From: Sialis fuliginosa
Taxonomy: Eukaryota; Arthropoda; Insecta; Megaloptera; Sialidae
Direction of reading: 5' to 3'
Length of the DNA stretch: 64,000 nucleotides
Assembly (NCBI GenBank): GCA_961205875.1
Contig: OY540814.1
Span: 28,774,151-28,838,150, forward strand
The notes under the pieces were generated by a model, which saw nothing but the letters and a program-made list of their open reading frames with translations, was not told the DNA's origin and searched no databases. Every line of letters starts with the position of its first letter. Position 1 is the stretch's first letter. Shown here piece after piece: positions 1-51,180 of the stretch. Position numbers and translations under genes: made by a program.

Positions 1-713
1 ATATTACCCAGAGTAATAAAAAAAATAAAGAAATCTTTATAAAAAGCGTATGCAGAAAATTAAATCTTGTGGTCGCAGAATTGTTTTAATTTATTTTATC
101 TTAGAAAATTTATCCGGGAATAAAAAAAAGCTCTTATTATGTCAAGAAGTTTATAGGATTAGAATAAAAAAACTACAATTTTGGCTTTCTGACAGTAACT
201 TTCGCTTGTATAAAACACGTTATTTTTATCTCGCCCATCGCCTGATGCTGGAGCGGAGATGTCCTCTTATTTTCCTAGGCATTTGATAAAAGATTGGATC
301 ACTCGACAATTTCTTCCAAGGCTACCGTGATGTATACATTTACAAAAATGTGCAATAAAAAAGACAACTTATAAAAAATAGATATGGTTGTTATATATTA
401 TGTGAAAGTGTTTTTCTTTCAATTTTGTAAAAACACGAAAAAGTAATTTTTTGTTGTTGTTTAAATGATTACGTTGAATTTTTGGGGGGAGGGGGAGGGA
501 GGGTTTAATTACTATTTAGAAAAATTGTAAGATAAATATCAATATTAAAGAATACTTACAATTAGTTTATACAGTGCTGGATTCAGGATTTTTGTATTGG
601 AGAACGGGGGTTAAAAAAATTATTTTTAAATTTTATATAAAAATATTTTTCATTACTTTTTACAGATTTAATTTTAAATTTTTTTTACGGAGTTAAACAC
701 AAAATATCTATAT
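1..713. other. AT-rich stretch without a gene; one G-quadruplex motif
   Basis: No gene is recognised. A 78-codon plus frame at 50-286 has no recognisable domain and looks like chance. At 484-503 four G-runs (6, 5, 3 and 3 G) separated by single A bases make a strong G-quadruplex motif. At about 574 the text CAGTGCTGGATTCAGG resembles a hAT-type end, but no partner end with matching flanks was found. Confidence 0.5.
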
Positions 714-1820: not shown

Positions 1821-1956
1821 ATTTTCAGGACACAATGTTCTTCCTCAGAATACAAGCTATCTCCCTACTAAATTTCACCAAAATCGGTTCAGCAGTTTAA
1901 GTGTGAAAAGATAACAGATATACAGACAGACATAGTTACTTTTAGCATTTATAATA
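1821..1956 (-). repeat. Family Q fragment (ACCGAT/ATGAAA-type repeat)
   Basis: Contains the reverse complement of the phrase 'gctgaaccgattttggtgaaa', then an (ACAG)n-like run and 'gttactttt-gcatttataata', the usual tail of this insect repeat. Other copies are at 7280-7390, 29270-29400, 51065-51180 and 58340-58433. It is the host sequence into which the 141-bp hammerhead element inserted: the tail is split by the insertion and continues at 2111. Confidence 0.6.
1944..1956. repeat. Left 13-bp target-site duplication
   Basis: AGCATTTATAATA, identical to 2098-2110 on the other side of the hammerhead element. Confidence 0.85.
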
Positions 1957-2097
1957 CTACTGGAAAAACGAAGAAACTGTGTTTTGAGTCTGGAACTGTT
2001 AGGCTCCTGATGAGGACTTCTTCTGAAGTCGAAACACGTGTCGAGTGACATTGTTTTATTGTGGTTAAGGTGTATAATAATAATTTTAGTTTAAGTG
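1957..2097 (+). mobile_element. Minimal Penelope-like retroelement (141 bp) with hammerhead ribozyme
   Basis: A 141-bp insertion bounded by perfect 13-bp duplications (AGCATTTATAATA). It opens with a 25-base piece CTACTGGAAAAACGAAG..., continues with the hammerhead segment and ends in a T-rich tail reading GGTTAAGGTGTATAA... to TTTAAGTG. A second copy lies at 31830-31980, where the main body is inverted relative to the same 25-base head piece. No reverse transcriptase is present, so it would need enzyme from elsewhere. Penelope-like elements are known to carry type I hammerheads with a very short stem III; assignment to that class is inference from the ribozyme type and the long target duplication. 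Confidence 0.7.
1996..2052 (+). ncRNA. Type I hammerhead ribozyme motif
   Basis: Core CTGATGA is at 2007-2013. Stem II is GACTTC (2015-2020), loop TTCT, GAAGTC (2025-2030). Core GAAA is at 2031-2034. Stem III is only C2035-G2040 plus A2034-T2041 with an ACGT loop, and the cleavage triplet GTC ends at 2042. Stem I pairs CTC and G (2003-2006) with GAGT (2043-2046), then after an internal loop TGT (1997-1999) with ACA (2048-2050). Cleavage would fall after 2042. One oddity: G2014 is an extra base between the core and stem II. Activity is predicted, not shown. Confidence 0.75.
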
Positions 2098-2110
2098 AGC
2101 ATTTATAATA
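2098..2110. repeat. Right 13-bp target-site duplication
   Basis: Second copy of AGCATTTATAATA, identical to 1944-1956. Confidence 0.85.
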
Positions 2111-3090
2111 TTAGAAAGAATAAACCTAAATATATTGTTAATATTATTTAAACATTAACACTTTAACATAATTATTCAAGAACTGTATATAGAAAAGCCA
2201 CGTGGTGCTATTTGCTGTATAGCCATAAAGTGGATGATAATAAAAAGAAAATAACTGCTTTATGCTAGTAATTTAATTGTAACCCCAAGTACAGTTACAA
2301 ACTTGAAAATCATCGATGTGCGTTGATGATATTACAGCACTTCTTGCAATACTGATTTTTTACTGGTGTGTGTATAATATCGCGGGGTAGAACTTGCCAT
2401 ATCGTCACCCTATCTGTATACATTTATTGTTTCATCTGCAAAGATTTTGATGTGTAGAAATATTAGTCCAGGCTGGCTAGATTAAAAAATAACTAAAATA
2501 GGAATTTTTACGTACAGTTTTAACTTTTAATACTCACAGGATTTGTTACAAATGTGGTGTAGAATATAAAAAAGGAGCTAGCAAAATTTGCTAGCTTGCA
2601 AGCACTTTCAAATGGGGTATTAATTCTGTACTAGTATCTATGGATTAGTTATGGAATTTAGAGCAGTGACACTTCAACCAATTGTAACACAGTTGGCATC
2701 TTTCACCGTACAAAATAATTTTCATAATATCACCACTGTTTTAATACCGTCGGTATTTACCTACAACGCGTGCGCGAAACTTGTCAAAGTCATCAACAAA
2801 CTCTAAAAGAACTGTCATATAAGTTTGATATCTCAACTGTTTTTGTTTTATTAAATTATTAATAATGGAATCATGCTTGTCTTTGATTAGCAATAATAGT
2901 TTTTTTAAATCCCTTCAAAAAAATTAACTCATGTGTATTTAACCCCCCCTAAAATAATTTCTTACTACGCCACTGGATATATGCATTACTTATTGATAAA
3001 TTAAAAAAAATTTCTTGATAATTTACTCATTTTGACTTGATTATAACTTAAATTTTAAATTATTATTTATTTATTAGCATCTTTATTTTT
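2111..3090. other. Non-coding stretch with a hAT-like right end
   Basis: No gene seen. GCTAGCAAAATTTGCTAGC at 2577-2595 is a short perfect inverted repeat. At 2940-2972 a C-run, ACTACGCCACTG and GATATATG look like the right end of a hAT-type element (the CAGTGGCG end class), but its left end could not be found. Confidence 0.4.
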
Positions 3091-27244: not shown

Positions 27245-27863
27245 CCCCACCAAAGGTAGTTCATTATTCAACAATTTAAATAAAAACCGATAGTGTTTAT
27301 ATAAATTGCCTGGAATTTGTTAACCATTTAATTTTTATACAATTTTACTAAAAAATATTAGTTCGAAATTTTTCTTAAATCACACCTGAATATTTTTTCA
27401 CATATTTTTAATTTTTTAACAATTTCAATTTAAATCTAAATTTATGCAAATGTCAAAATGATATTTAAAACGTCAAAATTTACATTTAATATATTCAAGC
27501 AAATTTTTTTAAAATAAATTGAGATAAATCTTTGTAAGGGAATATTTTACAACAAACGTTGTAGGAAATTTAATGCTCTACAAAAAATATTCTATAAAAT
27601 TTTCACGTAACATGTGTCGTTCTTGAGATATCTTGAAAAAAAATATTTTGGAGTGTCACCCCTCCCCCTTACATACGATTTTGATGATTTTGAAATGGGA
27701 CCGTCCTCAAGCCAGACCCAACCATCCGACCAAGTTTCAATAATATCCATTCAGTGGTTCATGAGTTATGCGTGTGACAAGGATTCAAAAATCGGAGAAC
27801 ATTTTTTTTGTCTCAATCTGAAACGATCACATAGCTTCTCGTATCTTCGATATTGCAAGGAAG
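27245..27863 (-). repeat. Family C repeat, near full length
   Basis: From 'ccaccaaaggtagttcatta' through 'aaccgatagtgtttatataa', 'tcttgagatatcttgaaaaa', 'tttcaataatatccattcag' and 'tagcttctcgtatcttcgat' to GCAAGGAAGC. The GTCT run is deleted. The 135-codon plus frame at 27614-28021 is this repeat read backwards and continuing into the tandem array, so it is rejected as a gene. Confidence 0.85.
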
Positions 27864-31829: not shown

Positions 31830-31980
31830 ATACCTCTTTCTACTGGAAAAACGGAGAAACTGTGATTTCTTAGTCACTTAAACTAAAAATATACACCTTA
31901 ACCACAATAAAACAATGTCACTCGACACGTGTTTCCACTTCACAAGAAGTCCTCATCAGGAGCCTAACAGTTCCAGACTC
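31830..31980 (-). mobile_element. Second hammerhead Penelope-like element
   Basis: Head piece CTACTGGAAAAACGGAG, on the plus strand as in the 1957 copy, is followed here by the main body in reverse: CACTTAAACTAAAAATATAC, then 'ttaaccacaataaaac', then the hammerhead on the minus strand to 'gttccagactc'. The inverted arrangement of head and body is a Penelope-like habit. No clear target duplication was found. Confidence 0.65.
31911..31970 (-). ncRNA. Hammerhead ribozyme motif, stem II weakened
   Basis: On the minus strand the core CTGATGA is 31959-31953 and GAAA is 31935-31932. The cleavage triplet GTC and the short stem III (CACGTG) are unchanged. Stem II reads GACTTC, loop TTGT, GAAGTG: the outer pair next to the core is G opposite G instead of G-C, so activity may be reduced relative to 1996-2052. 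Confidence 0.65.
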
Positions 31981-36959: not shown

Positions 36960-37546
36960 ATATTAATTTTTCTTAAAACGCACCTAATTATTTTTAATTT
37001 TTTGACAATTTGAATCTAAATCTAAATTTATGCAAACGTCAAAATGACATTTAAAACGTCAAAATGACATTTAATATGTCCAAGCAAATATCAATTTAGA
37101 AAAACAAAACACGAATTTTTAAAATAAATTGAGATAAATCTTTGTAAGGGAATATTTTACAACAAACGTTATAGACCCATATTATAGAAAATTTAATGCT
37201 CTACAAGAAATATTCTATAAAATTGTCGTTCTTGAGATATCTTGAAAAAATAAATATTTTGGGATGTCACCCCTCCCCCTTACACACGATTTTGAAAAGG
37301 GACCGTCCTCAAAGCACACCCAACCATCCAACCAAGTTTCAACAATATCGGTTCAGTGGTTCATGAGTTATGCGTGTGACAAGGATTCAGGGAACATACG
37401 GACGGACAGACAGACACGGAACGAAAAGTGTTTATCTTGACGTGAAACGGAAAGATCAATTTAAAATTTTGAAATCGGAGAACATTTTTTGTGTCTCAAT
37501 CTAAAACGATCACAAAGCTTCTCGTATCTTTGACATTGCGAAGAAG
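36960..37546 (-). repeat. Family C repeat
   Basis: From 'tactaaaaaatattaatttt' through 'aaacgtcaaaatgacattta', 'tcttgagatatcttgaaaaa', 'aacaatatcggttcagtggt', a GACAGACAGACA run and 'cttctcgtatctttgacatt' to GAAGAAGC. The tail end is missing. Confidence 0.85.
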
Positions 37547-48639: not shown

Positions 48640-49592
48640 TGATTCTCGAGTGATATAGTACTTACGTACAGACAGACAGACAGACGTTGCGTTTTATAAT
48701 ATGTAAGACTAGCTGGGCCCGCGCGGCTTCGCTCGCGTAGACTACGTAAAAACTGTATAGGATTTTAAAAATATATAGTTGAATTAAAACAAAAACGAAT
48801 CAGAACAAAAAGTAAAAATAATTTTTGTTCTATTTAAATTTAAAAGTTAATTATTGAAAACAAAATAAACAATTGACAATCAAAAGAATACCTTCCCTCT
48901 ACCCTGCGTCTACTCGGCACGCCGCAACACATAGTTGAATTAAAACAAAAACGAATCAGAACAAAAAGTAAAAATAATTTTTGTTCTATTTAAATTTAAA
49001 AGTTAATTATTGAAAACAAAATAAACAATTGACAATCAAAAGAATACCTTCCCTCTACCCTGCGTCTACTCGGCACGCCGCCATCTTACCGCACGCCGCG
49101 ACACGGGTCGCCATATCGCGCGAATAATATGTTCCCGTATGTATATTTCACGATATTTTCTAAACTGTACGATCAAATTGGATGCTGTAAAGGGCAAATT
49201 ATATCTACATGACGATGAAATAATTTATTTCGATAAATATTAATGTTTTGCAGGTTATAAGTCCACGTAAAAAAATTTTCTTTGTAACATAAAAGCAGCC
49301 ATTGTGGCTTGAATATAAAAGTTAGACATATGGTGTCGCTGACTTTATTGTAGATCTTTTGATTCTACACAATTCTTAACTACATTATTTTGTTCAATAT
49401 TGAACGGTTTAGGCAGCGTACTGCAAAATAGCGCGCCGACGGCAAATTTTTTCCGACTTGATTTACATTATCGTCACTGCTTAGTTGTTATGATACCTAA
49501 CGTAACAAAATATAGCCTATAACCTGAATTAAAAAAGAAATCACGTAAATCTGATAACGGACAGACGGACAGACGTTGAGCTTTATATATAT
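48640..49592 (+). repeat. Family S region (RTE/SINE-like) with internal duplication
   Basis: (CAGA)n and GACGTTGCGTTTTATAATA, then CTAGCTGGGCCCGCGCGGCT at about 48711, an insect RTE/SINE-type phrase, then a 156-bp tandem duplication, then 'tatgatacctaacgtaacaa' and a second (GACA)n with GACGTTGAGCTTTATA. No reverse-transcriptase frame is present. Confidence 0.5.
48775..49086 (+). repeat. 156-bp tandem duplication
   Basis: Two nearly identical units, 48775-48930 and 48931-49086, starting 'atagttgaattaaaacaaaa' and ending TACTCGGCACGCCGC. Confidence 0.9.
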
Positions 49593-50213
49593 TAAGGATT
49601 AAGGAAGATATGTACTTGATATATATATTCCAGTGAATCATAGTAAGTAAACGGTATAACATCGCAGCAGCCGTGCGAGATACGAACCCACTGCCAGCGG
49701 TGGACACAGAGGTCGCAACTAAATTGAGTTAGCGAAACGTCTGCAACGTTCAACCAATAAAACGAGTATAAACCGTACATTTTCAGTCACCTCAGTGACG
49801 AAATACAACCTCGTTCCTATTCTCGAGCAATATTTCACGATAACGAACGCAAAATGGTATAAATAAACACACAACATGTCTTATACCAATTCCAGTTATC
49901 AGTTAGATCGGAACATATATAACCGTGGAGTTTATGTCAATCTTTATACATGAAATTGTATATGAAGTCGTCGACGCAACAGCTCTACGGTTCTCCAGAG
50001 TGTCTTTGGCTCGGCACAAATTGGTTCAATTTCGGAATTGTTGATTCTTTGATAAGAACGCCCCGCCGAAATCTTGTGTGCCCGTTCACATGCGTGTTGA
50101 TAGAAATGATAAGACTTCCTCCCCCGGGAGACTCTGCTGCGGCATTCTGTTCTTCAAACGACGGGGATTTCAACAAATACATTACGTTCTGATATACATT
50201 GATAAACTCAACC
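49593..50213 (+). promoter_or_regulatory. Single-copy island with TATA- and CCAAT-like words
   Basis: CCAAT at about 49753, TATAAATA at 49858-49865, TATATAA at 49916-49922 and an initiator-like TCAGTT at 49899-49904 occur in one 170-base stretch. Spacings do not match a standard TATA-initiator pair (43 bases). Downstream, frames are open on both strands (80 codons plus at 49950, 65 minus at 49985) without a recognised domain. A promoter is only a possibility. Confidence 0.2.
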
Positions 50214-51065
50214 AGTTATTCTGATATTCCAATGTCTAAAGGAATGCTTTTGTTATATGTATCGTGTAGAATAATATATTTATATACAGATATAGCGCAC
50301 TTTTTTTTTATCTCGTTAATTAATTTATCCATACTAATATTATAAATGCGAAAGTGTGTCTGTCTGTCTGTCTGTCTGCAGTTATTCTGCTATTCCAATG
50401 TCTAACTAAAGGAATGCTTTTGTTATATTAGAAATGTATCGTGTAGAAAAATATATTTATATACAGATATAGCGCACTTTTTTTTATCTCGTTAATTAAT
50501 TTATCCATACTAATATTATAAATGCGAAAGTGTGTCTGTCTGTCTGTCTGTCTGCAGTTATTCTGATATTCCAATGTCTAAAGGAATGCTTTTGTTATAT
50601 TAGAAATGTATCGTGTAGAAAAATATATTTATATACAGATATAGCGCACTTTTTTTTATCTCGTTAATTAATTTATCCATACTAATATTATAAATGCGAA
50701 AGTGTGTCTGTCTGTCTGTCTGTCTGCAGTTATTCTGATATTCCAATGTCTAAAGGAATGCTTTTGTTATATTAGAAATGTATCGTGTAGAAAAATATAT
50801 TTATATACAGATATAGCGCACTTTTTTTTATCTCGTTAATTAATTTATCCATACTAATATTATAAATGCGAAAGTGTGTCTGTCTGTCTGTCTGTCTGCA
50901 GTTATTCTGATATTCCAATGTCTAAAGGAATGCTTTTGTTATATTAGAAATGTATCGTGTAGAAAAATATATTTATATACAGATATAGCGCACTTTTTTT
51001 TATCTCGTTAATTAATTTATGTATACTAAAAATAATAAATGCGAAAGTGTGTCTGTCTGTCTGTT
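50214..51065 (+). repeat. Tandem array, five units of 166-176 bp
   Basis: Units start AGTTATTCTG at 50214, 50380, 50556, 50728 and 50900. Each ends CTAATATTATAAATGCGAAA then GTGTGTCTGTCTGTCTGTCT. Units 2 to 5 differ by only a few bases, so expansion is recent. The last unit runs into a family Q body, so the array has grown from the 5' end of such a repeat. Confidence 0.95.
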
Positions 51066-51180
51066 TGTTACCTTTTCACGGCTAAACCACTTAACTGATC
51101 TTGATGAAATTTGGCAGTGAGATAGTTTACATCCCGAGGACGGACATAGGCTACTTTATATCTCGAAAATTCAACCCCTA
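51066..51180 (+). repeat. Family Q repeat
   Basis: 'gttaccttttcacggctaaa', 'cttaactgatcttgatgaaa', 'gagatagtttacatcccgag'. Continuous with the fifth array unit. Confidence 0.75.

What the first reader, a model, noticed from the sequence alone, without database searches (positions are those of the whole stretch)
1944..2110. A 141-bp ribozyme retroelement with a perfect 13-bp target duplication
The whole insertion is only 141 bp, consists almost entirely of a hammerhead domain and a tail, and is bounded by exact 13-bp repeats. It was placed inside the tail of another repeat. This looks like a minimal mobile unit of a Penelope-like element that moves without coding anything, comparable in concept to retrozymes.
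Basis: partly seen in the sequence, partly recalled or inferred. Interest (0 to 1): 0.8.

Follow-up and report, generated by a model that had tools for sequence, protein, structure and literature searches.

The report
Run-off insertion of a Penelope retrotransposon
A tiny 141-base genomic insertion carrying a self-cutting RNA motif proves to be the front end of a larger jumping gene (a Penelope-like element), apparently copied from near the start of its messenger RNA and pasted in, as were many similar pieces in the same genome, which may help explain why many animal genomes are littered with such motifs.

Summary
In detail: 141 bp (1957-2097) between exact 13-bp repeats, with a minimal type I hammerhead (cleavage expected after 2042), inside an older repeat's tail. 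It is not a self-contained retrozyme-like unit. Its hammerhead 36-mer has 1891 places (<=3 mismatches) in the window's own genome, where the same sequence ends a Penelope-like element (PLE): the insert is a solo PLE pseudo-LTR. Among 48 sampled loci most insertions are head-to-head, with outer ends at one of two sites, A or B; 35 of 40 two-ended cases have one of each. 5' ends pile up at one point (37 of 65 arms within 8 nt), a TCAGT initiator 31 nt below a TATA box. I infer a run-off product: PLE protein starts reverse transcription internally, about 100-138 nt from the cap of its own mRNA, on both cut strands, and runs to the cap. No excess of ends marks the ribozyme cleavage site. Two PLE families keep the hammerhead by compensatory changes. 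Pseudo-LTRs, tails, inverted copies and PLE hammerheads are known; I found no paper with the start-site border or the A-plus-B count, but key papers were not held.

The parts
1944..1956 (+). left target-site duplication AGCATTTATAATA (13 bp)
2098..2110 (+). right target-site duplication AGCATTTATAATA (13 bp)
1957..1985 (-). short B arm: the PLE 3' 'tail' (CACAGTTTCTCCGTTTTTCCAGTA in most sampled copies) in inverted orientation; read as a cDNA begun at site B on the other DNA strand
   Evidence: the cDNA reading is inference
1986..1986 (+). extra G before AGTCTGG; the parent PLE has C there (TATC|AGT); possibly copied from the RNA cap
   Evidence: cap origin is inference
1987..2097 (+). A arm: solo PLE pseudo-LTR from the inferred transcription start (AGTCTGG) to RT start site A (TTTAAGTG)
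2003..2050 (+). minimal type I hammerhead; cleavage expected after C2042
31840..31980 (-). second copy of the unit in the window, single-armed, from start to site B, no clear target duplication by eye; it has G in place of the C before GAAA (GAAGTGGAAA), so its ribozyme is probably dead
1881..2140 (+). host repeat tail that received the insertion; sister copies in the window show the target site once

Best explanation
The 141-bp insert is a solo pseudo-LTR of a Penelope-like retrotransposon. SHOWN: it matches the 3' pseudo-LTR of a PLE in the same genome; insertions of this kind often have 12-13 bp duplications; their outer ends lie at one of two fixed sites, A or B, mostly one of each; the inner 5' end is most often one fixed point, where the parent has a TATA/TCAGT core-promoter layout. 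INFERRED: PLE protein bound to its own mRNA makes a staggered cut of 12-13 bp and starts reverse transcription internally on both cut strands, at A on one and B on the other. Both sites lie about 100-138 nt from the mRNA cap, just upstream of the ORF, so RT on an mRNA lacking a downstream second pseudo-LTR soon runs off the cap. The two cDNAs are joined head-to-head and filled in. Here the B cDNA is 29 nt (less than the A-B distance) and the A cDNA spans site A to the cap. Only a transcript with a second, downstream pseudo-LTR can give an ORF-bearing copy. The hammerhead is carried along and probably serves the parent element; it does not set the ends of this insert.
For: PLE origin: in L028 an ORF C-terminus with GIY-YIG lies directly upstream of the unit (Pfam GIY-YIG E 0.002, 18.9 bits against a cut-off of 22.6); its relatives include proteins of the beetles Aromia moschata and Holotrichia oblita, some with GIY-YIG, some with RVT_1 plus PF26215. 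L083 has an 854-codon stop-to-stop frame with RVT_1 (E 6e-15; Pfam reports no GIY-YIG there at 0.01) and 89% identity to the L028 fragment over its C-terminus; it ends in the same pseudo-LTR at site A, has an inverted tail at the other end, an in-frame ATG just after site B and a 13-bp duplication. Two ends: of 75 arms in 48 loci, 40 end at R97-112 (A), 34 at R131-137 (B), one at R125 (arms ending before R91 or under 80% identity were dropped). One A plus one B in 35 of 40, five A+A, none B+B, P 1.4e-6. 5' border: 37 of 65 hammerhead-spanning arms start within 8 nt; genome-wide 1040 places span R0..37, 204 span R-21..16, 124 span R-46..-9. TATA at -31 and TCAGT at the border in 6 of 7 hand-picked extended arms from 5 loci. 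Arms of one insertion share variants (3.2% differences against 5.5% between insertions, 22 pairs, 0 of 2000 permutations). Internal initiation at two adjacent sites delimiting the 'tail' was shown biochemically for an Anolis PLE (PMC11167929, parts 1-2 of 4).
Against: No RNA data: the start site is inferred from motifs and borders. Five of 40 two-ended insertions score A+A (L048, L049, L070, L071, L075; L048 looks by eye like a deleted B), and a B end with a decayed tail would be scored A. In the Anolis work RT start sites did not differ between top and bottom strands, so A on one strand and B on the other is not shown there. -1 bases are C in 19, G in 11, A in 2, T in 1, so a cap origin covers only part. 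28 of 65 hammerhead-spanning arms start outside -3..+4, so truncation and read-through also occur. Places fall from 1891 (36-mer, R20-55) to 1040 (R0-37) already, which pattern tolerance and subfamilies may explain in part. One of the 7 extended arms (L011) has no TATA at -31. The test on family 2 could not be run: the search machine was busy on all 20 tries.
Confidence: 0.72

Rival explanations
1. Retrozyme-like unit: hammerhead-cut, circular RNA monomers of a non-coding family are mobilised in trans by PLE protein.
For: Small, AT-rich, non-coding, type I hammerhead; two direct tandem arrays of hammerhead units exist: 103 bp x3 (L008) and 176 bp x4 (L084).
Against: Arm starts show no excess at the cleavage site (2 of 75 in R50-62, one exactly at R56). 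Direct arrays are rare: among the 98 exact-core places listed on C1 there is one array of four, against 8 head-to-head and 0 tail-to-tail pairs within 500 bp (counted by eye). Solo units share the variant classes of ORF-bearing copies. The 103-bp array includes part of the inverted tail, so it probably grew at DNA level from one insertion (inference).
Confidence: 0.08
2. Solo-LTR recombination: a full-length PLE inserted and its two direct pseudo-LTRs recombined, leaving one copy and the duplication.
For: Would also give a solo unit with a duplication and a start-site border; PMC3846280 invokes recombination or deletion for some rotifer solo pLTRs lacking duplications (passages).
Against: A steady decline at that rate would leave about 1% or fewer full length. 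Arms truncated inside the unit also occur. Homology is only 104-138 bp.
Confidence: 0.12
3. Random 5' truncation of longer PLE cDNAs, with a strong RT stop (structure or modified base) at AGTCTGG instead of an RNA end.
For: Truncation elsewhere clearly occurs (11 of 65 arms start at R5-20).
Against: The stop coincides with TCAGT 31 nt below a TATA box, and a G not present in the parent precedes 11 of the 33 AGT starts left after setting aside parent-upstream and palindromic contexts.
Confidence: 0.08
4. For the head-to-head step only (not exclusive with the above): self-priming by fold-back, on an antisense template as proposed in PMC3846280 or on the first cDNA, instead of priming on both cut strands.
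For: Several junctions here are palindromic by eye; the L046 junction (AGTTCCAGACTGTTAGG) is what a fold-back of the cDNA end would give. PMC3846280 infers self-priming from such palindromes (passages).
Against: A cDNA that folds back and copies itself should end at the same site on both sides, but 35 of 40 have A on one side and B on the other.
Confidence: 0.1

Closest known systems
Penelope/Poseidon-clade PLEs with pseudo-LTRs and optional 'tail' (Adineta vaga, PMC3846280, passages; Anolis PAc, PMC11167929, parts 1-2 of 4 and passages)
   Same: RT + GIY-YIG ORF, short pLTR (with promoter motifs in Adineta, with a hammerhead in Anolis), inverted pLTRs, about 31-bp tail on one of the inverted pLTRs, target duplications, two adjacent internal RT start sites.
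   Different: Here, by pattern counts, arms that stop at the predicted transcription start outnumber those reaching upstream (1040 against 204 places), the A and B sites lie just before the ORF ATG (in PAc RT starts 111-118 bp into the ORF), and one-A-one-B was counted (35 of 40).
Dispersed minimal type I hammerheads of animal genomes, some in PLE pLTRs (Cervera & de la Pena 2014 and Lunse 2017: not held, known to me through passages of PMC7761336)
   Same: Minimal hammerhead with very short helix III, thousands dispersed in non-coding DNA.
   Different: Those passages call activity and role in vivo a mystery; the run-off insertion model would explain the dispersal.
Metazoan retrozymes (PMC7229834: abstract, introduction, part 1 of 3 of the results, discussion)
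   Same: Small, AT-rich, non-coding, type I hammerhead, duplications longer than 4 bp.
   Different: Retrozymes are tandem repeats of about 150-450 bp, expressed as hammerhead-processed linear and circular RNAs; this insert is single, with inverted arms, bounded by an inferred start site and RT sites.

Membership tests
Penelope-like element (solo pseudo-LTR) | same sequence forms the pLTR of an element encoding RT and GIY-YIG | tested here: met
   GIY-YIG in L028 (below Pfam's cut-off), relatives, RVT_1 in L083, whose C-terminus is 89% identical to the L028 fragment; layout
Penelope-like element (solo pseudo-LTR) | optional 30-40 bp tail between two RT start sites, inverted pLTR arrangement | tested here: met
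   ends and arrangement seen; that they are RT start sites is by analogy to PMC11167929
Penelope-like element (solo pseudo-LTR) | short target-site duplication | tested here: met
   31 of 48 loci at 8 bp or more, 21 of 938 in control pairs
Penelope-like element (solo pseudo-LTR) | insertion catalysed by the PLE protein | not testable with these tools
   needs biochemistry
hammerhead ribozyme (type I, minimal) | conserved core and three helices supported by covariation | tested here: met
   98.8% of cells paired against 29.8-33.3% when slid; 7 of 14 pairs changed on both sides (45 of 500 shuffles reach that; 0 of 500 reach the covariation score); six sequences, two families; helix III never varies. 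Rfam score is below cut-off and the monomer's minimum-energy fold is another one (-14.5 against -7.9 kcal/mol)
hammerhead ribozyme (type I, minimal) | RNA self-cleavage | not testable with these tools
   none
metazoan retrozyme | tandem repeats of hammerhead units of about 150-450 bp | tested here: not met
   single 141-bp insert; direct arrays rare in the family
metazoan retrozyme | units processed by hammerhead cleavage | tested here: not met
   no excess of arm starts at the cleavage site; speaks to insert ends only, RNA processing itself was not tested
metazoan retrozyme | circular RNA intermediate | not testable with these tools
   no RNA data
independent SINE-like family | own lineage separate from the coding element | tested here: not met
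   the three commonest indel variants occur in both extended and unit-only arms: 5 and 17, 3 and 17, 3 and 17; no tree was built

The most novel reading that the evidence does not exclude
Strong-stop insertion as a regular outcome of Penelope retrotransposition: because the enzyme starts internally near the cap of its own mRNA, at site A on one cut strand and site B on the other, monomeric mRNAs yield cap-bounded, ribozyme-bearing solo inserts instead of new elements. This would account for the large load of dispersed minimal hammerheads in animal genomes and for why PLEs need tandem copies to propagate.
Probability: 0.55. Interest if true: 0.72.

Novelty: new variant of a known kind. Interest (0 to 1): 0.55.

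Why it matters
PLEs are described as a third class of eukaryotic retroelements whose integration is largely open (PMC11167929). This family is a natural record of many such reactions (1891 hammerhead-bearing places): it suggests that both cut strands are primed, usually at different RNA sites, and offers a testable reason why minimal hammerheads are dispersed through non-coding DNA: they hitch-hike on run-off products. It also predicts that the inner border of solo inserts maps PLE transcription starts in other genomes.

Tried and rejected
Rfam at gathering level found nothing; the weak match needed a small search space. Pfam GIY-YIG over the genome gave two matches: L081, not a PLE (SLX1-like by my recall), and L082, another PLE-like element; so a fragment from L028 was used. 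The PDB search with the L083 frame found nothing. Hammerhead-core conservation against the rest of the unit was uninformative because the loci were chosen on that sequence (core 1.1%, helix III 3.7%, 3' part 3.0% mismatches). The minimum-energy fold of the isolated hammerhead does not form the ribozyme and is little better than shuffles (z -0.86 and -0.68). The L086 structure string was misaligned and is not used. Cap origin of the extra G is kept as a possibility only. A short intron ending at site B was considered and not tested. Fold-back self-priming was rejected as the main route to head-to-head copies, though one junction (L046) fits it. Rows dropped: one search left out arms ending before R91 (L038, L051, L070), one arm under 80% identity (L073) and upstream-only pieces (L033, L069). 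The reference used there follows the parent only to about R-97, where L028's own junction lies, so the two arms scored as starting at -97 extend further. One search left out L094 (core mutated) and the family-2 loci identical to L086.

Full report
1. What is there. AGCATTTATAATA stands at 1944-1956 and again at 2098-2110, enclosing 141 bp. The insert holds CTGATGA (2007-2013), a 6-bp helix II with a 4-nt loop, GAAA and a palindromic ACACGTGT, giving a minimal type I hammerhead with expected cleavage after C2042. Rfam sees it only below its cut-off. It sits in the tail of an older repeat; sister copies of that tail in the window, 77-80% identical, read through the site once.

2. Copies. The window lies in G000, an unnamed 392-Mb genome in 20 contigs, probably an insect: the named protein relatives are beetles, which is inference. 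The 36-nt hammerhead core has 941 + 950 places with up to 3 mismatches, 0 for the reversed control. As a sample not chosen on flanks I took the first 54 of the 98 exact-core places listed on contig C1 (L031-L080): 50 loci, 48 after removing two that repeat a neighbour. The first 30 loci were chosen on the whole unit (40 of 1258 candidates scored) and are not used for the counts below, except (-1 base).

3. Anatomy. I call the first A of AGTCTGG position R0. A full unit runs from R0 through the hammerhead to TTTAAGTG (site A, about R104) and on through ACTAGAAACCACAGTTTCTCCGTTTTTCCAGTA to site B (about R137). Most insertions are two such arms head to head, with outer ends at A or B. Of 75 arms in the 48 loci, 40 end at R97-112, 34 at R131-137 and one at R125 (arms ending before R91 were left out: L038, L051, L070). 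Scored automatically, 40 of the 48 have both ends called: 35 are one A plus one B, 5 A plus A, none B plus B (P 1.4e-6 against even odds). By eye one of the A+A cases (L048) is a B end with a deletion; a B end whose tail has decayed would be scored A. Direct repeats of 8 bp or more flank 31 of 48, 12-13 bp in 21 of 48, against 21 of 938 mismatched pairs with 8 or more.

4. The finding read in this light. Its first 29 nt (CTACTGGAAAAACGAAGAAACTGTGTTTT) are the A-to-B tail, inverted; then comes a G, then AGTCTGG to TTTAAGTG. It is a two-armed insertion with a short B arm and a full A arm. The second window copy (31840-31980, minus strand) is a single arm from start to B.

5. The parent. In L028 the sequence directly upstream of the unit is the C-terminus of an ORF with GIY-YIG; its relatives include beetle proteins, some with GIY-YIG, some with RVT_1 plus PF26215. 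Copies of this fragment are numerous and mostly partial (152 matches, 150 of 1043 candidates scored). One copy on C9 (L083) has an 854-codon stop-to-stop frame with RVT_1 and 89% identity to the fragment at its C-terminus, an inverted tail at its left end, an in-frame ATG just after site B, the unit at its 3' end stopping at A, and a 13-bp duplication. So A and B lie just before the ORF, near the start of the PLE mRNA. A second PLE family (mostly 54-57% identity) has a hammerhead at the same place. Of 12 family-2 loci fetched, five end at one site, two at another about 34 nt earlier, one (L086) runs on into the ORF, two are unclear and two did not match the probe.

6. The 5' border. Of 65 arms spanning the hammerhead in the 48 loci, 37 start at R-3..+4, 11 at -19..-4 (several are alignment run-on through palindromic junctions, by eye), 11 at +5..20 and 6 at -20 or beyond. 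Genome-wide, 38-nt windows at R0..37, R-21..16 and R-46..-9 have 1040, 204 and 124 places, control 0 each. The count already falls from 1891 (36-mer at R20-55) to 1040, so tolerance and subfamilies matter too. In the parent, R0 is the A of TCAGTC, with TATAAATA or TATATATA starting at -31, in 6 of 7 extended arms that I picked from 5 loci. That TATA at about -31 and TCAGT are insect core-promoter elements is recalled knowledge. A G not present in the parent precedes AGT in 11 arms, C in 19, A in 2, T in 1; 27 starts were not AGT, 13 continued into parent sequence and 4 were palindromic (of 77).

7. Mechanism. Shown elsewhere for an Anolis PLE: RT starts internally at two adjacent sites that delimit the tail, both DNA strands are cut and extended with no difference in start site between strands, hammerhead mutants do not change insertion in vitro, and that hammerhead cuts only when the protein is added (PMC11167929, parts 1-2 of 4). 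Put together with the mRNA layout here, internal initiation near the cap must give short run-off cDNAs unless a second pseudo-LTR lies downstream in the transcript. That predicts the ends, the sharp 5' border, the absence of ORF and the excess of solo units. Arms of one insertion resemble each other more than arms of other insertions do (3.2% against 5.5%, 22 pairs with enough overlap out of 48 loci, 0 of 2000 permutations), as expected if both are copied from one RNA or one source locus; later correction between arms could add to this. The A-B region folds alike in two families (a stem carrying an apical hairpin with site A in or beside its loop; z -2.1 and -2.7).

8. The ribozyme. Between the two families 7 of 14 hammerhead pairs change on both sides and 98.8% of cells pair, against 29.8-33.3% when the partner is slid; 0 of 500 shuffles reach the covariation score, but 45 of 500 reach the number of pairs changed on both sides (six sequences, two families, so about one evolutionary comparison). 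The fold is therefore probably kept by selection in the parent elements. It is not the minimum-energy fold of the isolated monomer; an extra base separates A9 from helix II in both families. Arm starts show no excess at the cleavage site (2 of 75 in R50-62, one exactly at R56), so most of these templates were probably uncut.

9. Rivals. Retrozyme-type circles: two direct arrays exist (103 bp x3; 176 bp x4) but they are exceptions, and solo units carry the same common variants as ORF-bearing copies. Solo-LTR recombination: would need full-length insertions to be common, which one search does not suggest. A strong RT stop in place of an RNA end: not excluded, but the promoter placement makes it less likely. 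Fold-back self-priming, proposed on an antisense template in PMC3846280, could make some head-to-head junctions (L046) but does not predict A on one side and B on the other.

10. Novelty. Pseudo-LTRs, inverted copies, tails, hammerheads and two RT start sites are in print (PMC3846280, PMC11167929, PMC7761336: passages and sections seen). In the listings of paper searches for Penelope with strong-stop, solo pLTR, transcription start and non-autonomous I saw no run-off model and no start-site border for solo pLTRs; several key papers are not held, so this is not a claim of priority.

Noticed in passing
L008:1514-1822 (G000:C10:2455280-2455608): Three near-perfect 103-bp direct tandem copies of the hammerhead unit, including part of the inverted tail; transcription could give 103-nt self-cleaved monomers.
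   Followed up: partly
L084 (G000:C1:39236050-39237050): Hammerhead unit with about 94 bp of other DNA amplified as a direct array, four units at 176 bp spacing.
   Followed up: partly
G000:C10:3223639-3253527: The same PLE fragment five times at about 7.37-kb spacing, suggesting a large tandem duplication.
   Followed up: no
window 48775-49081: A perfect two-copy 156-bp tandem repeat (100% matches).
   Followed up: no
window 50213-51068: A 172-bp five-copy array containing the same kind of repeat tail that served as target for the insertion.
   Followed up: no
window 27448-27489 and 37034-37074: The same 20-bp unit AAACGTCAAAATGACATTTA occurs as a two-copy tandem at two distant places.
   Followed up: no
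L082 (G000:C4:31455496-31455699 and flanks): A further element with GIY-YIG over Pfam's cut-off and, by eye, an RT-like frame; the one hammerhead pattern match in this locus has an imperfect core.
   Followed up: partly
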